Source: Pichia kudriavzevii (taxonomy: Eukaryota > Ascomycota > Pichiomycetes > Pichiales > Pichiaceae). Taken from it: 64,000 nt of DNA. The DNA is taken from the NCBI RefSeq assembly GCF_003054445.1, contig NC_042508.1:2232001-2296000 (forward strand), read 5' to 3'. Position numbers and translations under genes: made by a program. This document shows, piece after piece, positions 2,748-24,175 of this stretch (positions within the stretch are counted from its first letter, which is position 1; the number at the start of each line of letters is the position of its first letter). A model generated the notes under the pieces. That model was given only the letters and a program-made list of their open reading frames with translations, was not told the DNA's origin and did no database searches.

Positions 2748-5258
2748 CTAGAAAGTTTCTGAATCCAGACTTAAATTAAATTGGCTCAACATGTGGTTAT
2801 TATTTGAAAGTGGATTATTATCAGCAAAGATGGTCATTAAAGAAGGTTTGGAATTTTCTTTATTTTGAGTGGACACATCGAGTTTAACGTTTTGTTCTTC
2901 ATCAGAATATTCTAAGATTGAATCACTTAATTCCTCAACTGGAGGCTCAGATGGCGTGTCTCTGTTCGGTATTTTCAACTTAATTTCGTTATTTATGCAA
3001 TTGTCTCTATTGAATCTATTTGTAACCGTTTTCATCGGTGATCTTGTCCTTACAGATGTACGATTGTCATTTGGAGACGACATTCTCAAATTTGACGATA
3101 ATACAGAACGCTTGGCGCTAGAATTACTAATAGTTTTGCTGACTGATGATGATAGAACTGGCATGCATGGTGACTGCTTGGCCGTTTCTAGAGTATTCAT
3201 CTTGATGGAAGCACTAAGGTCTAGTTTCCTCAGTGGCGATCTTCCCCTCGAAGCAACACAATCCTTGGACAACGACTGTGGGGTGAAACGAGTATTTGTA
3301 GACGGAAGTGGGGTTGCTGTATTGGCTTGTGATTTCATTGGTGAAGTGTTTCTTGATAAAAATGGATTTGTCATTTGATTAACGTCTCTTCGGCGTATAA
3401 CTGAACGTGAGGGAGTTATCAGATCTCTTTTCTGTCGTGTAACACCCTTAGAATTCATCGTGCCCTTCTTGGTGGGTGCCACAGTGGGTGAATTGAAGTG
3501 AGAAATATTAGACCTTCTTCTTGGCAAATATTTGGATTCAATTGATTCCAGCTCTTCGATATATGGAGCTCCGTTTAGTTGAAATGTTCTTCCGTTTTGT
3601 CCTTCAAATTCTTTTATTTTGGACTTGATTTCATTTATTACAATAGGGAATTCCTTGTTTAGTTTATTTGTTGTTAGTTCCTCCATTCTTAATATTTTGA
3701 AAGCGTTTCTCTTTTTAAGTCTCGATACATCTTTCGAGGATTCCACCAGTTTCTTTTTCTCTTCTATTAAACCATTTAATGCTGATATTAACGATAAAAG
3801 AGGTTGTATAGCTTCACATTCCCTTCGTAATCTATCCAGTTCTGTCAAATGGGAGTCTAGCAGTGCTTCATCAAATAATGTTTCATCATCAACATAAAAT
3901 TCTTCAAACTTTGATCTCGCATCGCCATCATACATGAGAATATTCCAGTAACCTTCAATTTTCGATCTAGCATTGTAAATGAATTGTTTAATATTTGCCG
4001 TTTTTTCTTCTTCAAGCTGGATCAGTAAATTTTCAAAATTCATTAAAGACTCCGTGTAGAGGTTTTTATTTTCTCTTAAGAAGTCCTGAATTTCGTCTGA
4101 CTCAGGTCTTAATATTGACCACAAATGCTTTACTTTTTCAAGGTATACACTTAAAGTTTCTTGTCTAGATTCTCTAAGTTGCTGATAACTGTGAAGCTTT
4201 TCTTCGTACTCCCTGAATACAGAAGTCTTCAAACCGATATTCAGCAAGATCTTTTCATCGTCATTTATAGTTGCTGGTAAGGAAATATAATTAGACTCTT
4301 TATTGGTGTATAATTCATGATTTAGTGCCACTACCTTTTTCATCAAGCTCCTCAATGTCTGTAACTTGGTAGCTATAAACTCTTTAATTTTTAAGGTTTC
4401 CAGGTCAAGCTGTTCAATTATCATTGGATTAATCTTGTTAAAGTTTGTTTGTAGAATCGTTTTAATATCAGTCGCTCGATTTATCTGGTTGAAAAGGTTA
4501 ATATCGTCTCTGCTGGGTAGATTCTCTAAAAAATGAGAATCTTGGAATTTATAATCATCCACCAAGTCATAAAGTGAATAAAAGTGTTTTAACTTCTTAC
4601 TAAATGTTAATAGCTTCTGTGATAACACGGGTATCAATTTCAACAAATTTTCATCAATGTCTTTAGATAATGATAATAACGATAAATTTTCATTACAATA
4701 TCGTTCTAAATTATCCAGCGACTCTGACTTGTAGTCCATTATTAGTTTTCGTACTGCTGTAGTCAAAACAGACTCATCTAAGCTTTCGACTAGGGTAAAA
4801 GTCGAGGTTATTGAGAAGATCCTTGTAATGGTTTCCAAAGACTTGATAATATCATTTTTTATGCGTTCCTTCTCTAAATCTAGATCACTTATAAAATTGT
4901 CAAAGGTCATTTGCAAGGAGTGGTACCATTTTCTCAACTTCACTTCTTTATTCCCAAGTAATGACGCCAAATCACTGATCTGGTTAATTTTATTTACAAT
5001 TTCATCAATAGGTAGTTCGAATACCTCGGGTTCAACTTCAGTATTATTAAGTGTGTGTAGTTCATTTTTTAATTTTGTCGGATTATCATTCTGGTTTGCT
5101 ACTACTTGGGCATCATCTTTAACGTCGTTATCATTGTTATTATTAGTATTACTTGGTGACTGTTGAGAAGTAGCCACAAGCTGAGAAATCAAGCCCATTA
5201 GCTGTTCCTTCGATAAAGTTGAAAGTATGTCGGCGACGGATGTACTTGACTCCGACAT
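2748..5258 (-). CDS. ASE1: ASE1, anaphase spindle midzone microtubule bundler (MAP65/PRC1 family)
   Basis: Ase1 crosslinks antiparallel microtubules in the spindle midzone. The product is 836 aa from the ATG at 5258 (an upstream in-frame GTG was rejected); the S. cerevisiae protein is 885 aa. Features: a Gln/Asn-rich N-terminus; a long mostly alpha-helical rod (about 70-560) typical of MAP65 spectrin-like repeats; then a basic Ser/Pro-rich C-terminal tail with several Cdk-type SP/TP sites such as RSPMK and TPSR. A KEN box (residues 800-802) near the C-terminus fits APC/C-driven destruction at mitotic exit, which is known for Ase1. It converges with SGT1, with only 87 bp between them. Confidence 0.92.
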   Translation of the reverse strand: MSESSTSVADILSTLSKEQLMGLISQLVATSQQSPSNTNNNNDNDVKDDAQVVANQNDNPTKLKNELHTLNNTEVEPEVFELPIDEIVNKINQISDLASLLGNKEVKLRKWYHSLQMTFDNFISDLDLEKERIKNDIIKSLETITRIFSITSTFTLVESLDESVLTTAVRKLIMDYKSESLDNLERYCNENLSLLSLSKDIDENLLKLIPVLSQKLLTFSKKLKHFYSLYDLVDDYKFQDSHFLENLPSRDDINLFNQINRATDIKTILQTNFNKINPMIIEQLDLETLKIKEFIATKLQTLRSLMKKVVALNHELYTNKESNYISLPATINDDEKILLNIGLKTSVFREYEEKLHSYQQLRESRQETLSVYLEKVKHLWSILRPESDEIQDFLRENKNLYTESLMNFENLLIQLEEEKTANIKQFIYNARSKIEGYWNILMYDGDARSKFEEFYVDDETLFDEALLDSHLTELDRLRRECEAIQPLLSLISALNGLIEEKKKLVESSKDVSRLKKRNAFKILRMEELTTNKLNKEFPIVINEIKSKIKEFEGQNGRTFQLNGAPYIEELESIESKYLPRRRSNISHFNSPTVAPTKKGTMNSKGVTRQKRDLITPSRSVIRRRDVNQMTNPFLSRNTSPMKSQANTATPLPSTNTRFTPQSLSKDCVASRGRSPLRKLDLSASIKMNTLETAKQSPCMPVLSSSVSKTISNSSAKRSVLSSNLRMSSPNDNRTSVRTRSPMKTVTNRFNRDNCINNEIKLKIPNRDTPSEPPVEELSDSILEYSDEEQNVKLDVSTQNKENSKPSLMTIFADNNPLSNNNHMLSQFNLSLDSETF

Positions 5259-6372
5259 AGTTTCTGATGCCTTTTCAAATTCTGCAATCACTCCTTTCTT
5301 GTTGGACAGTCAGTTCAACAACAATATTTTAAAAGAGTAAATATGCTATTTAGTTGTTATCCAAATAGAATATTTTCACAACAAATGCGACACATACAAG
5401 TGTATCGCGATGTTTACGTTTTACCTACTTCGGAATATTTGATGGGGCTCTTCAGAAATGAAACAACACAGTGCAAAATAGATTGACTAATAGTGGAACT
5501 TCAAAGCCCTGGTTTATCATTTATTAGTTGAAAGAGCCATCTCTTACAAGGCACAAAGAAAATAGGTGTACCATCCACAGCTGCGCATTTCCACACACAA
5601 TAGCGGGAATGACAATTCTCCCTAAAGAATTTCTCACCTACTCTCTTTTGTTTCTTTTCTCTCGATTATTCCTGTCCGGAAATAGCTTGACCTTCGGCTC
5701 ATCGTTTCTCTCGGCAACAGCAAATCAACTATCAGCTACAGAACAAACTAATCGACAGTTTTTCAAAAGAATTCATTATAGGCCATGGCTTTTAGTTGTG
5801 GGAGAAGTGTTGGAGTAACAGTTTCTTCCATTTCAATAGGCAATGTGAATCTATGCGGAAACACGCCAAAATTATCTCCGCCATTACATAAAAGAGTCCG
5901 GATAGGATCCCGGATAGTTTAGCCGTATTAGGAATGTAAAATAGACTAGAAAGGCGTGTGGCGCATCTCCAAACCACGTGCTAGGCTGCGCCACCAAGCG
6001 CATATCTTCTAATTTCCCACTATCCTGGGATTCTACTAACCCGTAGAATCATGTTTAGAGATGGTTGCACCCAGGGTATACTGATTCACTATCACCTTAA
6101 AGATGCCTGGGCTATGAAAGAATTTTATTCAGTAACTGAAACAGTAGAAAAATCCATCATACCCCGAGGTTTTTGTTCCGGTTTCGCAGAGACCGAAATT
6201 TTTTTTTTCATTTTTTTTTTTCATGATTTTTAGTCATCTAGTGTAATGCAAGTTGCCACTCCGTTATCGATATTCACTTGAGGTTACGCTTGCACCTTTT
6301 TTCTCGTGGAAGTTTGAACATAGTTTTCGAATTAATCTTGTTTCAAACATTCAGCATTCAGTCATTAACAAA
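5259..6372. other. Divergent ASE1/DRE2 intergenic region, 1.1 kb
   Basis: This is long for the window. It holds three ORFs of under 100 codons (5528-5818 +, 5792-5977 -, 6051-6233 +) with no recognisable features; I do not support them as genes. It contains the E-box flanked by inverted GC-rich arms at 5958-5994 and T-tracts interrupted by C and A at about 6199-6222. No tRNA or MCB box (ACGCGT) was seen. Confidence 0.5.
5958..5994. promoter_or_regulatory. E-box CACGTG flanked by an 8-bp inverted repeat
   Basis: GTGGCGCA (5958-5965) and TGCGCCAC (5987-5994) are perfect inverted arms around a 21-bp loop that holds CCACGTG (CACGTG at 5975-5980). CACGTG is the core bound by Cbf1 and Pho4 bHLH factors. 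The arms match the motif at 1408 upstream of SGT1. It lies 379 bp upstream of the DRE2 ATG and 700 bp upstream of ASE1. Confidence 0.4.
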
Positions 6373-12941: not shown

Positions 12942-13383
12942 GTTTAATGATTACAAATTTTATGTCTTTTTTTCAACCCATTTTCTACTTTTTTCTTTTG
13001 GTTTTCAGTGCCCTCTTTTATATAAAATTATGTTATCCTTTATTCACAATTAACCCTTTATTTATTTATCCTAATTTATACATGAGCTATGTCTACTACT
13101 TTATAAATTATTAATTAAGTAACAACTCTTTTTTCTTGGAAACAACAAACAAAAAAAGAAGAAGCAAGGAGGGAAAAATGGAGGAACAAAGATGTTTTAT
13201 GTATCCTATTTTGTTAAATTCAGATATTAGTTTGCCCTCTTTCCCTGGGCAGACTTGCTTGCAACAAAAAAAATAAAACATGGATATCTAGCTAAAGACT
13301 CTTAGAGGGTGACCTTCATACATATCCAAGTAACGTTTATCTTTGGTCTGTCAAGAGAGAAGATATAGTACAAAAATCCAACA
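12942..13383. other. KGD1 3' region and GAS4 promoter
   Basis: AT-rich 3' region with T-tracts and TTTATTTATTT-like sequence that could guide 3' end formation of KGD1, then an A/G-rich stretch (about 13140-13180). I saw no gene and no clear meiotic promoter element (URS1 or MSE) before GAS4. Confidence 0.4.
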
Positions 13384-15378
13384 ATGGGGAGCATCGTTCT
13401 GACATGGAAGTCCCTATTCCTTTGTTTTTCAACAATGTTGCATTTAATACAAGCCATGGTACATCCAATTGAGATTAAAGGAAAACATTTCTATGACTCT
13501 GTCACTAATAAGCCTGTATGTTTGTAGAATCCAACAAGATCGATCTCATCGTCGACATTGATGGCTGTCTATTCTATGATATATACTAACTTCCAATTAC
13601 CGATTTTCTTTGTACTCAGTTTTTCATTAAAGGGGTAGATTATCAACCAGGAGGAGCAAGTGGAGTAAGTGAGCAAGCAGATCCTCTTTCCAACCCTTCT
13701 GCATGTGCTCGAGATATAGCACTTTTTCAAGAGCTAGAGATTAATACAATCAGGGTCTACTCTGTAAACCCTGACTTGAATCATGATAAATGCATGACTT
13801 TGTTGGCCACGGCTGGAATATATCTTGTCTTGGATGTAAACACACCGTTAGAAGGACAACACCTAAATAGAAATGAGCCATGGACCACATATACTAGCAA
13901 TTACTTGATACATATTTACAACGTTGTTAATGAGTTTTCTGGCTACAACAATACATTAGCATTTTTTGCTGGTAACGAAATTGTTAATGATGAGATTTCG
14001 GCTACTCATTCGCCGATTTACATTAAGGCCGTCATCAGAGATTTAAAGACTTTTATAAAAGAAAGCGATATGAGGCAGATTCCCGTTGGGTACTCTGCTG
14101 CGGATGATTTATCTTATCGGATTCCTTTGGCAAAATATCTAGAGTGCTTTGAAAATGATCCAATCGAACTGGTTGATTTTTATGGTGTCAATACGTATCA
14201 GTGGTGTGGAGAACAAACGTTTTTTACTTCTGGCTATAACAAGTTGGTGAAAGATTACTATGATTATACAAAACCAATTTTTTTCTCAGAATATGGATGT
14301 AATGAGGTATTGCCAAGGGTCTTTAAAGAAGTTGGACCAATCTATTCCTCAAAGATGATCGATGTCTTTTCTGGTGGACTAGTATATGAATTTGCACAAG
14401 AGCCAAACAACTACGGGTTGGTGGATTACGATGATCTCGGGAACGTCAGATTATTGCCGGACTTTTATGCATTTAAAGAGCAAATATCAAGGGCCAAGGA
14501 TATCAAATTATCGAAGAAATTTCAACACCAAAATCAACAGTTTCTCTCTGGTAAATTGGAGAAGGAAAAAGGTAGTACAAACAAGATATGTAATCTGCAA
14601 TATGATAATTTGGATGTATCCAAAGGCCTCCCAAAATCGATAGGATCCCAACTAATAAAAAATTTTGCTGGAAAAACAAAGGGTAGTTTTGTTGCCTTAA
14701 CAGAGGAAGATTTGACAGTAATGCACAAAGTGTTTGCTCCGAATGGAAGTGTGGTATACGATTATTTAACGGTGAGAGCAGTTCCAGAACTGATTGGAGA
14801 ATCAGAAGATGTGATATCATGTATGTATCGAAAAACAACAATGAATCTGGCTTTGTAAGGTGACAGATTCGATGTAAAGAGTACCAAATGATGGGAATGA
14901 ATAAAATAGGAAAAGAACAGGGGAAGTTGGATTAAACACAAAACCAATAGAATGGAAAGAACAAATAGCATAGGTTAAAGATAGATAGGCACAATGAACA
15001 ACAGGATGACTACCTCTTAAAACTGTATAGTGAAGATTTACGGGGTAAAGGAACCAATTTATAGAAGACTGAAAAAACTCTTATTTCCAACATCGCCAAA
15101 CACTGGTTATCAAAGCATAGTTGTAAAACATGAACTTGGTCATCTAAGGGAGAGAGAAGTTCCGGTTTTCCACACATTATTTTTATGAAGTTTAATTTAG
15201 GAGGAAACATTTATGCCTGCTTACTTTATTTTCATTCTTCTCCTTCTCTGACAAATCCAGCTACCGAACGTAGTACTAACACTAGTATCCGATTGTTATA
15301 GCCACATCAAAGCTTAATCCATTTTTGTCAGTGATCTTAGGGATATCCCTTCAATCACTTTTTAGTGGTTTTTTCTGA
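13384..15378 (+). CDS. GAS4: GAS4-type GH72 beta-1,3-glucanosyltransferase, three exons (third inferred)
   Basis: Gas proteins elongate and rearrange beta-1,3-glucan; Gas4 in S. cerevisiae acts in the spore wall. Exons: 13384-13515, 13620-14820 and, as inferred here, 15302-15378, giving 469 aa (Gas4 is about 471). A signal peptide is followed by the GH72 domain with Gas4-like blocks (FFIKGVDYQPGG, DPLSNPSACARDI, INPDLNH-like VNPDLNHDKC). The acid/base is E164 (FFAGNEIVND) and the nucleophile E268 (FFSEYGCNE). There is no X8/CBM43 module, as in Gas4. If the second intron is not spliced, the frame ends at 14858 with no membrane anchor. With it spliced, the protein ends in a hydrophobic GPI-type tail (SKLNPFLSVILGISLQSLF then SGFF). 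First intron certain; second likely. Confidence 0.85.
13516..13619 (+). other. GAS4 intron 1 (104 nt)
   Basis: It starts GTATGT, has branch point TACTAAC at 13584-13590 and ends TACTCAG at 13619. Splicing joins codon 44 (P) directly to FFIKGVDYQ in phase 0, restoring the GH72 N-terminal strand. Without splicing the frame is broken, so the start upstream would be missed. Confidence 0.93.
14821..15301 (+). other. GAS4 putative intron 2 (481 nt)
   Basis: GTATGT at 14821-14826, exact TACTAAC at 15274-15280 and TTATAG ending at 15301, 21 nt after the branch point. The only nearer AG (15284-15285) is 4 nt after the branch site and too close to use. Splicing is phase 1 (T|CC, Ser) and yields a 25-residue tail with the form of a GPI-attachment signal. 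Confidence 0.65.
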
Positions 15379-15614
15379 GTATCCGTGTTGGACTAATTTG
15401 TGTTACCCTAAATAATCTAAATTTCACAAACAGCCACATCTTTGCTCCATATAAAAAATCATGATGTATTTGCCACGCGTTGCAACATACAGTTTGACAC
15501 AAGTGGTATGCATCATTGGTTCTTCCCTTTCGAGTTGTCAAAAAGCCAAATAAATTCCATATAAGATATATAACGAGTACCTATAACTACAAAAGAAGGT
15601 TCCAGGTTAATAAC

Positions 15615-16258
15615 CTAGTAAACAAAACCTAAGATTTTACCGGAGACGTGCTTTCTCTTAGCTTCTTCGTGATCCATAATACCTGCCGATGTGGTTAAAA
15701 TAACATAACCAAACTGTCTTGCTGGTAACAAGTTATCAGTCCACTTTTCAATTTCGTTAATTTTAACATTGTATCTTGGTTGGATAACACCACACTTGTT
15801 TAATCTACCGTTAAGTTGAATGACAATTTTACCTGATCTGTGATCATCAATGTACTCAAATTCTCCAATGTAACCTATGTATAACAAAAAAAAATGTGTT
15901 AGTATTGCTAGCACTGGGAAATGTCTCCAAAGACAACCTATGAGTAGACAAAAAAAGGTTATGGCTACACAACTGATGGTCGCCCATGGATTTGATCTTC
16001 CGGAAAATTAAAAGACAGCCAGCTATTGATAACAAATCAAAATCAAAAAAAGATAGAGATTTAACGAAAGCCATCCAGTTATCATTCCGGGTGTAAGTAT
16101 TAAAACATAAAATTCAAATACATACCATGCTTTTGCATAACAGTCAAGAATTTAATAATAACCTTAGATGATGGTCTAATCAAAACTTGTCTCTTACCAG
16201 ACTTTTCTGCGTTGTTAATTGCGTTTAATGCATCTGCTAAAACTGAAGTTCTTGTCAT
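15615..16258 (-). CDS. RPS22: RPS22, 40S ribosomal protein uS8, two exons
   Basis: Cytosolic small-subunit protein uS8. Exon 1 is 16258-16126 and exon 2 is 15874-15615; the spliced product is 130 aa, exactly the family length. It begins [19 protein letters not shown] and ends [11 protein letters not shown]. Splicing after 'CAT G' restores the conserved [19 protein letters not shown]. High-expression codon use. S. cerevisiae RPS22B also carries introns. It is convergent with GAS4 and divergent from TTI1. Confidence 0.97.
15875..16125 (-). other. RPS22 intron (251 nt)
   Basis: On the minus strand it starts GTATGT (16125-16120), has TACTAAC at 15904-15898 and ends CATAG at 15875, 23 nt later. 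It is long enough to host a snoRNA; the S. cerevisiae RPS22B intron hosts H/ACA snR44. I could not identify boxes with confidence here. Confidence 0.95.
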
Positions 16259-16906
16259 TTTTTTGGATTAGTTACTATTTAGATAAAAGGTTAATCAAAA
16301 GTGTTAGTATCATAGAGTTTATCCAGCGATATGATCAGGAGGGCTGATGCTTAAAGCTAGTGCCACATGAGTGTCCATAGGGAGTCATGAGCTATTGGAT
16401 TGATTATTCCAATAAATGAAAGTAGGGTATTATGAGGCCAAAATACAAAAATCAATATGCTTTACTTCACCGGAAGATAAAGATAGTGATTTTAAATATA
16501 CTGGACATGCATAATGCCTATATCATTGTAGTTATATTCAACATGAAACAGAACGGGGATATATATGAACAAGATGTATTACGTGACTCTATAGTTGTAG
16601 GAACTGCAAAAATAAGTTGTACATACAATGTGAATATGTGTTGTTGCGTTTCAATTTTTGAGGAAAAGAAACAACCGTTAGACTAAGGAGTAAAAAAAAA
16701 AAGTGGACGTCTCGCAATTTAAATGAAGAAAGAACTGCGAGCGTTTCCATCAAACACAAAAATAAAAAAAATGGAGACTTCATTTAAGGCCGGGTAATTT
16801 GGGGCACCATGGTTTTATTTGCAGATTACTTCAAAATTAGAAAGTACAACTGGACCATAGAAGGAAGGTTCCGGCACCAGAGAGTAGTCTCAGAAGGTTC
16901 TATTTC
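16259..16906. other. Divergent RPS22/TTI1 intergenic region
   Basis: 648 bp between a strongly expressed ribosomal protein gene and TTI1. ORFs at 16432-16686 (+) and 16589-16783 (-) have no recognisable features. I saw A-tracts (about 16690-16702 and 16762-16771) but no clear Rap1, Tbf1 or CACGTG site. Confidence 0.4.
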
Positions 16907-19900: not shown

Positions 19901-20149
19901 AAACAGAATGAAATGAGGACGCACCAGGTGGTATTGAATCAAACCAGCACGTCAATAAACTGGGAAACTGAAACATATAGGAGAGTAGCCAAACTTTTCG
20001 TTTATGCTCTAGGAAAGTTGGGACGCTTCATCCCTATTGATGTCGCTACATCGATTATTGGCATCACGCTACCCCTTGTTCCAAATCCGGATAACTACGG
20101 TTACTTTGATGATTTGGCTTATTTTTTAAAGGATTTTTCAGATAAATAG
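16907..20149 (+). CDS. TTI1: TTI1, Tel2-interacting protein 1 (TTT complex)
   Basis: Tti1 with Tel2 and Tti2 forms the TTT co-chaperone that matures PIKK kinases (TOR, Tel1, Mec1, Tra1). 1080 aa; S. cerevisiae Tti1 is about 1038. The N-terminus (IFRSIKPKCVELAE, then LADYIMVPLTGILK) matches the Tti1 start, which in human reads AFGVLRPVCVQL ... LQQYILFPL. The rest is HEAT-like helical solenoid. An acidic Asp/Glu/Ser loop (about 820-875) precedes the conserved C-terminal block with VRMWEMVTYHINK and LEELIRYGNTFFASRF. The start chosen is the ATG at 16907; no upstream in-frame ATG is preferable. I first considered RRP12 but the N-terminus argues against it. Confidence 0.85.
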   Translation: MEGASSIFRSIKPKCVELAEITLANGSSSSLQRANALKGLDDILNQSIASYGGPDLQIPISLADYIMVPLTGILKRETLTDTELEHVLSIIFQLLKFSWCKPGSLSNELFNQYIVLLTFLVGGKPGQFSIKKHSDETFQNGINCIHELVKGALNGLPGGTQSVLHDQKYMPTFGHLLTILLNISTDSHIPAIKVSALETINSFFYLVNDGEILSLFFPGTVSTIAKIIKSKPHSNVMSQSFRTLSTLVNFVFSDFSIGTELRRDDASLEALKAKIESSAGDNNDLFELSLKRNVTIEIPEHAEPKKVNRTFEWLETTMVQFNKALKIILNIDFNRYDKFSVRDSLFEFEVKMIRNCFLSCHGVIPLLLRSLSNVCAVDQSFYTIATDSILTLSEFELLKSLIKDIITEELHAMQYNFISPDPTKAENSIRLLTLLTHILDASGETDDSLTSAIILKLQENLSYLFEIKASKDIKKVSAANNSITSIESEMLIISKYYALNSFEITNKNRLFEGIFTASTEEVLMKLIAGISTKLTSLNDFNIVSLDPSPKGLIRSSIRTWIVSHMIVNTVGATAQEPSDFLLLDNDSTNSTDTKAEQVVYDLTYSTLESSLSILQYCSTLSTDSATLTASTVMCLRSINNSITILGDEFKDELIDVLYPVVECLASSNEVIRGEAQLVTIRIANMLYGGSIKTLLYENSDYLVDALSFRLVGDVLTPKVPLILSVLVNLGTMDIISTMDDVIRTIFTLLDTYHSYTSLCEGFFFFFNELISKVYGSLDDFDFTQLETDLEEDNVMTFSMWGLKSEHDVEEFVSKKSLQNEYLGDSDDEKDIIDEPVERNKFLDIDSDDEDDDGRMSVPSIKGNEEGEEDDDKWMSPLDVKLYLTISNILSYAERLLYTKSTSLTILLLKTIAKIIPLLATQKSKFLPAAVRMWEMVTYHINKASDFRIMNLCFDVLEELIRYGNTFFASRFIDFVRTANGNKFIRSLISKQLDVLKKLKQNEMRTHQVVLNQTSTSINWETETYRRVAKLFVYALGKLGRFIPIDVATSIIGITLPLVPNPDNYGYFDDLAYFLKDFSDK

Positions 20150-20234
20150 AAATAATGTAAATAACTGCAGTAATTTACTAAGTAGCAAGTTTTGTTTAAG
20201 CATTCGGTTTAATTAACAATAAAAAATTTTAATA

Positions 20235-20306
20235 AGGTCGTACCCGGATTCGAACCGGGGTTGGTCGGATCAAAACCGACAGTGATAACCACTACACTAT
20301 ACAACC
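20235..20306 (-). tRNA. tRNA-Gln (anticodon UUG)
   Basis: Read on the minus strand, 72 nt starting GGTTGTATAGTGTAGTGG. The acceptor stem GGTTGTA pairs with TACGACC (one G-U). The anticodon arm is CGGTTTTGATCCG with anticodon TTG; the T-arm is CCCCGGTTCGAATCCGGG. Discriminator base U, no intron. Closely similar to S. cerevisiae tRNA-Gln(UUG). Box A (TAGTGTAGTGG) and box B (GGTTCGAATCC) are intact. Confidence 0.97.
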
Positions 20307-22027
20307 TTAATGAATTTAAGTATATTTTGTTTCTTTATATTGTTCAACTTTTGACTCGGGCTTTTAAAACGCTTTCCAAAAGAATCTTGTATCTGGTTTT
20401 TCATAAATTAGAAAAATTCTTTTTGAAAACCTTTTTTTTTCGTATATTGAGTTTACTCTTTCTTTTCTTTCAGTATTATCATTACAGTGAAGTGTTGTTG
20501 GAATCATTGCTAAGATACCTAGTTAAAACTTTAACCACTAACAGTCAAAACATTTTTACTATAAGTAAATTGATGTTAATCTGATCTAATTGGACAAAAT
20601 CTCATAATTAGAAAGTCACTATATTGTATATTATATGGTCAAATTCGAATTCTTGATCCATTACAAATAGGCTTATCTTCGTGTACATTGTTTATTAAAC
20701 ATCAAATACTCTTAGAAATACCAGAAAGTTTTGTTTTTGCTAGTTTGTTTTCAAAGGGTTATTTTTATATCAACTTGATGTAGGCAGTTTAAAATAAATA
20801 TTCAAGGTATATTTAATACGTGCCAACAGTCTTTTCCAAAAAAAAAGAGAGTTTAGCACAAATGCAGTAACCATATTTTGCCCTGAATCCTCAGTCAGAA
20901 AGTTGTAGGCTTTACAAACAATGCCCACTTCTTTTATCTTTAATGAGTAAAACAACGTACAGTGTTGTGAAGCCCCATGAACGATACTTTTAGTAAAGTC
21001 ACTACTTCCCTAACCCGATAATTATGTGAACATAAAATATTTACCACCCATATCTGATACTAAGTGTAAACCGCCTGTAAAAGTGATTCTTTAATTTTGA
21101 CCTGCTCATAGGTTGTTTCTATTTTCATAGAAACATCTTGAAGGAAAAAAAAGCTCATTTACAAAACTTCCAGTTTGTATTCATTTTGCCAGTCCCTTAT
21201 GATGCAACAGTGAAAATAATAATATTCTTCTTTACTATTTTGTTCATATCATTTGCGACAATCTTGCCAAAAAGTAGATTCAATAATTTATAGAATTGGA
21301 CTCGGGATGTTTTTTTGACTTAGGTGTTACTTTACAACTAGAGGGTTTTTCTTAGGGGGGAAAGCAGCACGCATACTGAGAGGTACTTTATCTACGTTGC
21401 CTTAATGTCAATATTCTGTAGAGCCCAACTGAACTCCTTTGATAAAAAAACAAGACAAAACAAGGCGAAGTAATTGACTATAAGATTGAAAGAAAAATTC
21501 CATCTGAGAACAGGGAACGTTAAGAAATAACTTCGTAACGATAGACCTATATTTAAAAGTTTGCAATAACGGTATATAACAGGAAGACCAACCAATTTGC
21601 GCTTTTGTATTTCAACAAAAAGTTACTGGAGCATATAGCGTTTTTGGAACTGAAATAAACAAACTATTCTTGATGAAAATCGTCGTTGTTTCTTCTACAT
21701 TTCTCTGATGTTTGAATATTTCATCAATACAAGGAATCTATTGAACCGCTAAAGATACAATAACATGTTTTACTAACAGTAATCATTTTTACCACTTTGA
21801 CACACAAAACAAAATCTTGAAGCATAAAAGATTATATGTAATCATCAAGGAAGTCCCCCAAGTCCAGTGAGGTTCTAGGAAAGGTGTCATCCGCTATTAT
21901 TTTTTAAAAAAGGCAGAACAGCACACATCTTTAAACATCTGATAATTATTCTAATCGCTGTTAAGTCAATTACCGTTTAAGAGAGTAAGTAGCTGGATCA
22001 AATACCTAAAACTACTATGATTCCACT
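20307..22027. other. 1.7 kb region without a recognised gene
   Basis: AT-rich DNA between tRNA-Gln (whose 5' flank this is) and the 3' end of the C2H2 regulator gene. ORFs are all short (20261-20584 +, 20770-20955 -, 21392-21595 -) and featureless. I found no second tRNA, no paired terminal repeats, no tandem repeats and no known ncRNA motif. It could hold an unannotated ncRNA or decayed sequence; I cannot tell which. Confidence 0.45.
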
Positions 22028-24175
22028 TCATAGAGTACCAAAACCATGCCCTGATGCATAAAAAACTAGAGCATTCGTACTTTTCTTTCTATTTCTGCAT
22101 AAATCCAAGAGATTCAAAAAAAACTTAGATTTTTCTGAATTATCTTTTAAATAAACAAACTTCATGATCCGAATCAAACTATCAATGTAACCTATTTCTG
22201 GAACATTTCCGATTTTTTTAACAAAGGAGTCAATCATAGTTTTATCAAAGCTGAAATTACCACTTAATTTTTCTCTCAAGAAAAAATTTGTTTGCAAAAA
22301 TAGTCCACTTTCCACTTTTGCTAGCCAGTCGGAACTGCTTTCTGATAAATTGTTACTTCCCGGTAACTCAAATCCGTCTTCTGGTCCAAATACTCCAAAT
22401 GTGTACACAGTAAGTAACATAATAACCGACAACAGAACCTTGGATCTTTGATAAATCACATCTTCGGAAGGGGCGTAATCTAATAATGTTTTTCCATCTT
22501 CATGCAACGATGTCAAAATTTGAGAAAGAGCCCTAATTGAATATATGACTGAGGTATATGCATGTCCACTATGATCCCACTCAATGATCGCTTCTAAAGT
22601 TTTTTCGTACATTCTGGCATTTCTTTTAGAAAGTCCAATGAAAATCTGGATATCTTCTAAATTTATGGATGAAAACATCACTCCTAGAGAAAGAGTACAA
22701 TATGATAGCTCCCAAGCTAGAGAATTATAAGATTCCCTGTGTTTCGTCAAGACCCCCTCCCAAAATATTAAGGCGTCTATAGTTTGATTTCTTAAGAGGT
22801 AAACTTCACCAATACTTACTAAGGAAGACACCTCCGTCAATCGCTCTAGTTTCCTTAATATATTTACCAGTCCTGCTACTATTGCATTCATCGCAAAACA
22901 ACCGGCATTCAGAACTTCCCTTCGGTACATCTTTTTCAGCCCAGTATGTAGTGATATACCTACTAGTTCTTTTCTAAACTCAATTGGGCTTATTTGCGTG
23001 GCTTCCCATAAATGTTCAGAACAAGGAATTTTCAAAGCAGCAATGTCTCCTGGTAGTAAGTTTTCAGTGCCCATGAAAAAAGATTCTATTGTATCTACAC
23101 ATAATGCCATGAAAAACACCCTCCTCAGCGATTCTCGCAAAATCCAGTCATCTATAAAGTAATTTGTGCCAGTCTCCCCAAGATTAGGACATTGTAAATA
23201 TTCTGAGTTAATTAACGATTTCAAAACCTGAAATTTTAGTCTGTCCGATACGAAACGAGGTTCACAGAAGGTGGAGGAGTTGCTGATTTCATAAACTTCA
23301 TACAACATGGTACTTTGAATAGTGGTGAGATCTGTAATATTCAATATTTCTGGCTCTTGAAATAAAGTACAAACTTTTGCCTCAATATTTTTCATGATAA
23401 GTTTATTGTTTTCTGATTTATCATTTTTAGACGAATAAAACCCCCCCAGTAGAACTACTGCTAATAATAATACATTAGGACATGACTCGGCACAAAAAGA
23501 GGGTCGATGGAGTATGGGATACTGCGGGTGAAATATAGTCCAGTACGACTCCAAGTATTTATGTAGTAGCTCTTTGTTGAAACAGTTAGTATCTTTTAAC
23601 TGAGGGACCAAGTCGACAACTTTCTCATAGCAATCTTTCATTTCAGTGTGACCATATATACTTTCAGATTTCAGCAAAAGTAAGGAATTGGGTTCTATAC
23701 CTTCGATGTACTTTTCCATTACCAATGACGAGCTGGATTCAAAACCAATTATTGCACAAGAATTGAAGGATTTTAAGCCCCAATCTATGAGCTTACTAAT
23801 ATGAGTATTGTCTAGTTCAGCATTGAATCCTGATAGATCCATTTTACCCTGTCTGAGTTTTGGCACGTCCTCAGATTTCTTCTCCTCAATCGTGTCATCA
23901 CTTTTAATTTCGTGGTGCACTTTGTTATGACTAGGGCTCTCGTAATCGATAAATTTAGTTTCCACCTTTTTGTTATGAATCAACTCATGCTTTCGCTTAA
24001 TGTCTGACCTGGTGAATAGTCTTTTACAACCGGGATATGAACATTCAAGTGTTGGCCCGGAATGCGTAAGTTTGTGTCTTGAGAGGTGATCAGAGCGAGA
24101 GAATACTTTGTTGCAACCTCTGAAAGTGCAGAGAAATTTTTTATTATCTTGTTTCTCAACTTTCCCAGAAACCAT
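22028..24175 (-). CDS. C2H2 zinc-finger transcription factor with fungal middle-homology region
   Basis: 715 aa from the ATG at 24175. Two adjacent N-terminal C2H2 fingers: C16/C21/H34/H38 and C45/C50/H63/H67, with recognition-helix sequences RSDHLSR and RSDIKRK. A basic/charged linker follows, then a fungal transcription-factor domain (from about 195, with LESYWTIFHPQYPILHRPSF, the usual start of Fungal_trans). The layout, two C2H2 fingers plus MHR, is that of the RSF2/TDA9/ADR1-like group rather than Zn2Cys6 factors; I cannot name the orthologue. It lies in a same-strand run with the Zn2Cys6 factor and the amidase, so it may act locally. Targets unknown. Confidence 0.85.
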   Translation of the reverse strand: MVSGKVEKQDNKKFLCTFRGCNKVFSRSDHLSRHKLTHSGPTLECSYPGCKRLFTRSDIKRKHELIHNKKVETKFIDYESPSHNKVHHEIKSDDTIEEKKSEDVPKLRQGKMDLSGFNAELDNTHISKLIDWGLKSFNSCAIIGFESSSSLVMEKYIEGIEPNSLLLLKSESIYGHTEMKDCYEKVVDLVPQLKDTNCFNKELLHKYLESYWTIFHPQYPILHRPSFCAESCPNVLLLAVVLLGGFYSSKNDKSENNKLIMKNIEAKVCTLFQEPEILNITDLTTIQSTMLYEVYEISNSSTFCEPRFVSDRLKFQVLKSLINSEYLQCPNLGETGTNYFIDDWILRESLRRVFFMALCVDTIESFFMGTENLLPGDIAALKIPCSEHLWEATQISPIEFRKELVGISLHTGLKKMYRREVLNAGCFAMNAIVAGLVNILRKLERLTEVSSLVSIGEVYLLRNQTIDALIFWEGVLTKHRESYNSLAWELSYCTLSLGVMFSSINLEDIQIFIGLSKRNARMYEKTLEAIIEWDHSGHAYTSVIYSIRALSQILTSLHEDGKTLLDYAPSEDVIYQRSKVLLSVIMLLTVYTFGVFGPEDGFELPGSNNLSESSSDWLAKVESGLFLQTNFFLREKLSGNFSFDKTMIDSFVKKIGNVPEIGYIDSLIRIMKFVYLKDNSEKSKFFLNLLDLCRNRKKSTNALVFYASGHGFGTL

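What the first reader, a model, noticed from the sequence alone, without database searches (positions are those of the whole stretch)
14821..15378. Hidden second intron gives GAS4 a GPI anchor
Seen: the open frame ends at 14858 with no membrane anchor, odd for a Gas protein. But GTATGT lies at 14821, exact TACTAAC at 15274-15280, and the first usable AG ends at 15301. Splicing in phase 1 adds 25 residues, a small-residue start then a hydrophobic tail, ending at TGA 15376-15378. The total becomes 469 aa against about 471 in S. cerevisiae Gas4, whose own C-terminus is also a short hydrophobic tail. Plain ORF callers would give a soluble truncated enzyme. If introns 1 and 2 are both real, splicing could also gate a sporulation gene.
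Basis: partly seen in the sequence, partly recalled or inferred. Interest (0 to 1): 0.75.

Follow-up and report, generated by a model that had tools for sequence, protein, structure and literature searches.

The report
Hidden intron restores yeast enzyme's anchor
A yeast cell-wall enzyme gene very probably has a second, overlooked intron near its end whose removal adds the tail that ties the protein to the cell surface, and related yeasts seem to share it, so their listed proteins may be cut short too.

Summary
Confirmed: GTATGT 14821, TACTAAC 15274-15280, TAG ending 15301, TGA 15376-15378; splicing gives 469 aa. Best evidence is comparative. In 14 Pichia-type homologues plus this gene, 15 of 15 rows read [C/G][E/K/M][Y/F/W/S/stop] at one column, in eight variants, each encodable as N|GT(A/G)AGT or N|GTATGT, a shared phase-1 donor. 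That group was picked after seeing the tails; in a C-terminal search picked without it, 15 of 19 hits fit, 3 run into hydrophobic tails, 1 ends early. The four other GAS loci found here have in-frame hydrophobic tails. Exon 3 cuts a 756-nt convergent gap to 236 nt. Chance joining of donor, branch site and tail is roughly 5e-6 (from, post hoc). No transcript was seen and no relative's DNA was available, so splicing, codons and relatives' last exons are inferred. Sporulation gating found no support. Eight of 14 Pichia-type relatives have 45-280-codon read-through tails, so a retained-intron isoform is possible. Ordinary machinery; apparently a widespread missed exon.

The parts
13384..13515 (+). 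GAS4 exon 1 (44 codons, signal peptide by eye)
   Evidence: Translation; the unspliced frame stops at 13527.
13516..13619 (+). Intron 1, 104 nt: GTATGT, TACTAAC 13584-13590, CAG; phase 0
   Evidence: joins KP|FFIKG as in uninterrupted homologues; P0003, P0005, P0016, P0068 and P0089 read Q just before FFIKG, FFIQG or FYIKG, as a CAG acceptor would give.
13620..14820 (+). Exon 2: most of the GH72 catalytic domain and the C-terminal domain
   Evidence: PF03198 E 1.6e-131 over residues 22-335 of the spliced protein; model of the exon-2 frame pLDDT 82.5, pTM 0.85, pLDDT under 50 from exon-2 residue 392; junction codon is exon-2 residue 401.
14821..15301 (+). Intron 2, 481 nt, phase 1
   Evidence: donor inferred to be shared with Pichia-type and Ogataea-type relatives; no Rfam match in it and no unusual folding, z 0.13.
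14821..14826 (+). 5' splice site GTATGT
14820..14858 (+). Read-through tail CMYRKTTMNLAL and stop if intron 2 is kept (12 residues)
15274..15280 (+). Branch site TACTAAC (branch A 15279)
   Evidence: 22 nt from the acceptor.
15299..15301 (+). 3' splice site TAG
   Evidence: First YAG that is not within 6 nt of the branch A.
15329..15331 (+). Possible alternative 3' splice site CAG, in frame (459 aa, shorter hydrophobic tail)
15302..15378 (+). Exon 3: rest of the junction codon, then TSKLNPFLSVILGISLQSLFSGFF and stop; GPI-type signal
   Evidence: Best 13-residue Kyte-Doolittle mean 1.92, above 12 of the 69 homologues scored as having a hydrophobic C-terminus.

Best explanation
The gene is the GAS4-type GH72 beta-1,3-glucanosyltransferase of a Pichia kudriavzevii-like yeast and has three exons. 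The spliceosome removes a second intron (14821-15301) that interrupts a codon just after the folded enzyme. Exon 3 then supplies the GPI-attachment signal: small omega-site residues (S/S/T/S), a short polar spacer and a hydrophobic end; GPI transamidase would cleave it and anchor the enzyme at the plasma membrane or wall. The phase-1 terminal intron is probably inherited within Pichiaceae and perhaps older; gene models stop inside it. Shown: the sequence elements, the frame, the tail and the protein-level pattern in relatives. Inferred: that splicing occurs, that the tail is used, and that relatives have a matching last exon.
For: Consensus donor and branch site, 22-nt branch-to-acceptor spacing. 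Pichia-type rows 15 of 15 (14 relatives and this gene) fit N|GT(A/G)AGT or GTATGT at one column, with 8 variants; the next column, the conserved GK[YF] motif, has 13 of 15 with 2 variants. Ogataea-type proteins 5 of 5: P0007 in the same column, P0008, P0010, P0018 and P0020 one column over. Because these groups were picked after seeing the tails, two counts chosen otherwise: of the 19 hits of the C-terminal search 15 fit, 3 have hydrophobic tails (P0016, P0034, P0118) and P0038 ends early; of the 25 listed proteins at 60% identity or more, 18 fit, 2 have hydrophobic tails, 1 (P0012) fits only with GTACGT and 4 (P0004, P0031, P0035, P0038) show neither. A donor-compatible triple lies in the last 13 residues of 25 of 63 homologues without a hydrophobic C-terminus against 3 of 69 with one (Fisher 4e-7, kinship not corrected); 7 of 132 end exactly in [CRSG][KEM]-stop, all among the 63. 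The four other GH72 loci found in the genome have in-frame hydrophobic ends. The model's ordered part ends about 10 residues before the junction. The convergent gap to RPS22 is 756 nt unspliced (1 of 26 sampled gaps is larger) and 236 nt with exon 3. Neighbouring RPS22 uses the same GTATGT/TACTAAC signals and its intron holds a snR44 match.
Against: No RNA evidence. No DNA of related yeasts could be fetched, so their codons, branch sites and last exons are unseen, and that their records are unspliced readings is itself inferred. By eye 39 of the 63 proteins without a hydrophobic end show the strict donor reading, 7 more (Candida-clade type) would need GTACGT, and 17 show neither, among them Ambrosiozyma P0004, Komagataella P0035 and Wickerhamomyces-like P0126. 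A GH72 protein can lack the signal naturally (S. pombe gas2p, PMC2987803). The tail is moderate: its hydrophobic core contains S, Q and G. Motif pairing alone is about twice the null mean over 254 kb and within the null's range. Eight of 14 Pichia-type relatives stay open for 45-280 codons past the donor, so in those species the read-through may be real protein. PMC8476143 (one passage) infers substantial secondary intron gain in P. kudriavzevii, which speaks against assuming great age.
Confidence: 0.88

Rival explanations
1. Intron 2 is real but alternatively used: splicing gives the GPI-anchored enzyme, retention a secreted enzyme with a short or charged tail, and the balance is biologically meaningful.
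For: Read-through tails in 8 of 14 Pichia-type relatives are 45-280 codons, where about 3.6% would reach 45 codons by chance at GC 0.35; six of the eight are 23-42% Lys+Arg, and P0001 and P0002 share a NENGVDK stretch. TFB3 introns of seven Candida-clade species stay open when retained, and spliced and unspliced mRNAs were found in three of them (PMC3338533, passages seen).
Against: In this genome the retained tail is 12 residues; the long tails give no match to the intron region better than E 0.045, and that one is on the other strand. Purine-rich DNA can stay open without selection; the first 260 nt of this intron are 66-68% purine.
Confidence: 0.2
2. The gene truly encodes a soluble 456-aa enzyme; the donor, branch site and hydrophobic frame are coincidence or a relic.
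For: S. pombe gas2p apparently lacks the signal (PMC2987803); C. albicans PHR3, called the GAS4 orthologue, is described as lacking an identifiable GPI site (PMC5753161, passages seen); four hydrophobic frame ends lie in this region.
Against: Chance product about 5e-6 and the donor-compatible column in 15 of 15 Pichia-type rows. The PHR3 description may rest on the same kind of gene model.
Confidence: 0.06
3. C-x-Y is a conserved protein motif at the start of a variable C-terminal tail, not a splice site; the gene in this genome lost its longer tail.
For: Six of 14 Pichia-type relatives read C[E/K]YC, and 11 of 19 Candida-clade-like proteins read [C/G/S][T/M][Y or stop] near there (by eye); Komagataella P0035 has a Lys-rich tail and no anchor.
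Against: In the Pichia- and Ogataea-type rows the first position varies C/G/S/R, the second E/K/M, the third Y/F/W/L/S/stop, always inside the donor-compatible set; a protein motif would hardly end in a stop right there, as in P0009, P0022, P0024, P0033, P0119, P0123 and P0132.
Confidence: 0.05

Closest known systems
Saccharomyces cerevisiae Gas4 (P0069 cluster)
   Same: Same family and length class (471 against 469 aa), 52% identity to exon 2, hydrophobic C-terminus.
   Different: The S. cerevisiae gene has no intron before the tail (recalled; only its protein was seen here).
Candida albicans PHR3 (called the GAS4 orthologue)
   Same: PMC5753161 (passages seen) calls it the only PHR gene with an intron and the one whose protein lacks an identifiable GPI site: the same anomaly.
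   Different: Candida-clade relatives listed here have other tails, several ending in a similar amphipathic stretch, so the read-through may be real there; PHR3 itself was not fetched.
TFB3 intron of the Candida clade
   Same: Phase-1 yeast intron whose retention can be translated (PMC3338533, passages).
   Different: At the 5' end of the gene and open in frame throughout; here the intron is terminal and retention truncates.
Schizosaccharomyces pombe gas2p
   Different: There the authors checked the C-terminal region against a frameshift or sequencing error; here an intron would account for the lack.

Membership tests
GH72 / GAS4-type glucanosyltransferase | PF03198 domain over its cut-off | tested here: met
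   438.7 bits, cut-off 25.9
GH72 / GAS4-type glucanosyltransferase | Closest to GAS4 rather than to the other paralogues | tested here: inconclusive
   By names only: many of the 120 listed hits are named Gas4, a few gel2 or GAS1; no tree was built
GH72 / GAS4-type glucanosyltransferase | Transglycosylase activity | not testable with these tools
   Needs an assay
Yeast spliceosomal intron | GTATGT donor, TACTAAC branch site, YAG acceptor at usual spacing | tested here: met
Yeast spliceosomal intron | Position conserved in orthologues | tested here: met
   Protein-level inference only: 15 of 15 Pichia-type rows including this gene, 5 of 5 Ogataea-type; 15 of the 19 hits
Yeast spliceosomal intron | Spliced RNA | not testable with these tools
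   No reads available
GPI-anchored protein | N-terminal signal peptide | tested here: inconclusive
   Hydrophobic N-terminus MGSIVLTWKSLFLCFSTMLHLIQA by eye; no predictor run
GPI-anchored protein | Small omega-site residues, spacer, hydrophobic end | tested here: met
   Crude score 1.92, above 12 of 69 homologue tails scored hydrophobic; no dedicated predictor was available
Meiosis-regulated intron (Mer1 type) | Mer1 enhancer in the intron (motif recalled) | tested here: not met
   Absent from both introns

The most novel reading that the evidence does not exclude
The terminal intron of GAS4 is an ancient budding-yeast switch: where it is spliced the enzyme is GPI-anchored, where it is retained the same enzyme is released or held in the wall by a charged tail. 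Lineages have fixed different outcomes: uninterrupted anchor in Saccharomycetaceae and Brettanomyces-like species, translated read-through in the Candida clade, both forms in part of Pichia.
Probability: 0.15. Interest if true: 0.75.

Novelty: new member of a known kind. Interest (0 to 1): 0.5.

Why it matters
If true it corrects a cell-wall enzyme's topology in several annotated yeasts, suggests why GAS4-type proteins (perhaps including the described anomaly of Candida albicans PHR3) seem to lack an anchor, and shows that a whole terminal exon can be missed again and again because it is tiny and lies behind a long intron. The charged read-through tails make a soluble-versus-anchored switch directly testable.

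Tried and rejected
Motif statistics alone were too weak to decide. Intron RNA structure: no signal, z 0.13. An RNA gene in GAS4 intron 2: no Rfam match at E up to 1 (the only hit in 13300-16800 was snR44 in RPS22). Sporulation control: no MSE or URS1 (recalled consensuses) in 12942-13383, no Mer1 enhancer. Another acceptor: of 21 AG sites from 15285 to 15661 only those ending 15301, 15331 and 15340 lead into the hydrophobic frame. A decayed copy of the relatives' long tails in this intron: nothing better than E 0.045. DNA of relatives: viral contigs gave no relative, genome contigs one bacterial GH72-like locus (L026, 33% identity), not used. A wider alignment that adds eight Wickerhamomyces/Cyberlindnera-like rows gave 24 of 28 at the column, but some of those rows fit there through an unrelated SEY stretch, so I do not use that count. 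Papers: ten searches listed none that, from titles, abstract starts and the passages read, describes a terminal intron in GAS4; most subscription papers are not held, and Ragni et al. 2007 was not held. Passages of PMC8476143 and PMC8567612 show no GAS4. PMC5010203 (passages) concerns another paralogue and mentions GAS4 only in passing.

Full report
WHAT THE SEQUENCE SHOWS. The genome holding the window has 10.79 Mb in 5 contigs, and a PF03198 search returned five GH72 loci; from size and content I infer Pichia kudriavzevii, but no call names it. On the + strand the GAS4-type gene has exon 1 at 13384-13515, a 104-nt intron 1 (GTATGT, TACTAAC, CAG) and exon 2 from 13620. Read on without splicing, exon 2 ends at 14858 with CMYRKTTMNLAL. 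The codon TGT is also T|GT of GTATGT at 14821. TACTAAC lies at 15274-15280 and TAG ends at 15301, 22 nt from the branch A. The join gives ..EDVIS-STSKLNPFLSVILGISLQSLFSGFF-stop, 469 aa in all.

IS IT MORE THAN CHANCE? In 254 kb of this genome (the window plus 19 readable 10-kb stretches of 20 fetched), donor/branch/acceptor combinations within 1 kb number 8 against a mean of 3.68 in 25 Markov runs (maximum 9), and 6 against 1.0 in the window. That alone decides nothing. A hydrophobic C-terminus of suitable length follows 222 of 12,336 YAG sites and a stricter GPI-like one 30 of 12,336. About 0.9% for GTATGT in the last 38 nt, 3% for a branch site in range (3.68 of 123) and 1.8% for the tail give about 5e-6, a rough post hoc figure that assumes independence.

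THE COMPARATIVE TEST. Three protein searches gave 132 different listed homologues; of 3,565 and 3,695 significant hits in the two full-length searches only the best 120 each are shown, and one search listed all of its 19. Many look like readings without splicing (they begin or end where an intron would), which makes them informative. In 14 Pichia-type proteins the end of the conserved domain reads SCEY, SCKY, SCKW, SCKF, SCKS, SCK-stop or SGKY, and in this gene SCMY. At that column 15 of 15 rows fit [CRSG][KEM][FLSYCW or stop], in eight variants. These are residues that N|GTGAGT, N|GTAAGT and N|GTATGT can encode in phase 1. The next column is the conserved GK[YF] motif (13 of 15 rows, 2 variants). 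Past the site the tails run from 2 to 280 codons, and among those of 20 residues or more only P0001 and P0002 matched each other at E below 0.01. Ogataea-type proteins P0007, P0008, P0010, P0018 and P0020 read NGKY, NSKF, NRKF, NRKL and NRKL, the first in the same column and four one column over.

A CAUTION AND TWO LESS BIASED COUNTS. I formed the Pichia-type group after seeing the tails, so 15 of 15 is not blind. One search covered only residues 300-469: of its 19 hits 15 fit the donor reading, 3 run into hydrophobic tails (P0016, P0034, P0118) and P0038 ends early. Of the 25 proteins listed at 60% identity or more, 18 fit, 2 have hydrophobic tails (P0016, P0108), P0012 fits only with GTACGT, and P0004, P0031 (a partial record), P0035 and P0038 show neither.

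BEYOND PICHIACEAE. By eye, and mostly without a firm column alignment, the same reading fits 7 of 8 Wickerhamomyces/Cyberlindnera-like proteins (P0022 ends GE-stop, P0024 and P0132 SK-stop, P0123 GK-stop, P0028 CKF, P0032 GEY, P0039 SKY; P0126 does not), 7 of 7 Hanseniaspora-like proteins without a hydrophobic end (CMY, SMY, SMF, SM-stop), and single proteins of Saccharomycodes (RMY), Pachysolen (GMY) and Ascoidea (GE-stop). Groups follow names where given and otherwise resemblance, not a tree. Of 19 Candida-clade-like proteins 4 fit strictly (M) and 7 would need GTACGT. In total 39 of 63 homologues without a hydrophobic end fit strictly, 7 in the relaxed way and 17 not at all. As a blunt test, a donor-compatible triple lies within the last 13 residues of 25 of 63 proteins without a hydrophobic end and 3 of 69 with one (Fisher 4e-7, not corrected for kinship). 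One of the 69, P0043, is a Pichia-type read-through that only scores as hydrophobic. Serine in SCKS could also be AGY, and E, K and the first-position residues have codons that would not make a donor; without DNA this stays an inference. The great age of the intron is therefore open, the more so as PMC8476143 (one passage) infers secondary intron gain in P. kudriavzevii.

WHERE THE INTRON SITS. AlphaFold2 on the exon-2 frame (pLDDT 82.5, pTM 0.85) has pLDDT under 50 at residues 392-412. The junction codon is residue 401, in a flexible stretch about 10 residues past the ordered part, where a GPI signal is expected. The four other GH72 genes found in the genome carry in-frame hydrophobic ends, with crude scores 1.86-2.75 against 1.92 for exon 3. 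Several Pichiaceae-like homologues run straight into hydrophobic tails (P0013, P0016, P0034, P0108).

GENOMIC CONTEXT. The next gene, RPS22 on the - strand, ends at 15615. The gap from the unspliced GAS4 stop is 756 nt, larger than 25 of 26 sampled convergent gaps (median 110); with exon 3 it is 236 nt. RPS22 has its own GTATGT/TACTAAC intron containing a snR44 match (37.3 bits, gathering 33), a useful positive control for the splice signals.

HOW IT PROBABLY WORKS. Most likely the intron is simply removed and the enzyme is GPI-anchored like its paralogues. Rival: regulated retention. Open read-through tails of 45-280 codons in 8 of 14 Pichia-type relatives, six of them 23-42% Lys+Arg, and a shared NENGVDK stretch in P0001 and P0002 suggest that in some species the retained form is translated, as argued for TFB3 introns in the Candida clade (PMC3338533, passages). 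In this genome retention would give a soluble enzyme with a 12-residue tail. No sporulation-specific element was found, which is weak evidence.

LITERATURE. PMC5753161 (passages) calls Candida albicans PHR3 the GAS4 orthologue, the only PHR gene with an intron, and without an identifiable GPI site: the same anomaly. PMC2987803 (passages) is a warning: S. pombe gas2p apparently lacks the signal, and the authors checked against a frameshift or sequencing error. PMC5849708 (passages) names I. orientalis GAS4 among genes up-regulated under ethanol stress, so test data may exist.

VERDICT. It is a new instance of a known kind (a missed terminal exon), but one that seems widespread in budding yeasts.

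Noticed in passing
15615-16258, - strand: RPS22 with an intron that contains a snR44 H/ACA snoRNA match (window 15954-16092).
   Followed up: partly
16275-16626, - strand: GTATGT...TACTAAC...TAG just upstream of the RPS22 start: a possible 5'UTR intron, 352 nt.
   Followed up: no
P0008, P0010 (Ogataea thermomethanolica, O. philodendri records): Listed proteins fuse RPS22-like sequence to GAS4 exon 2, probably a gene-model error at GAS4 intron 1; it suggests the two genes are neighbours there too.
   Followed up: no
P0001, P0002, P0006, P0011, P0014, P0017, P0023, P0029: Long open read-through tails past the inferred donor, six of the eight Lys/Arg-rich.
   Followed up: partly
P0040, P0044, P0045, P0048, P0089, P0092, P0102, P0114: Candida-clade-like GAS4 proteins share an amphipathic C-terminal stretch (like FHKVxDxVKxFxxxLF) instead of a GPI tail.
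   Followed up: no
14821-15080: First 260 nt of intron 2 are 66-68% purine on the coding strand.
   Followed up: partly
5225-6058: Another GTATGT/TACTAAC/TAG combination, 834 nt, not examined.
   Followed up: no
20149-22028: Long convergent gap of 1878 nt between ORFs of at least 150 aa.
   Followed up: no
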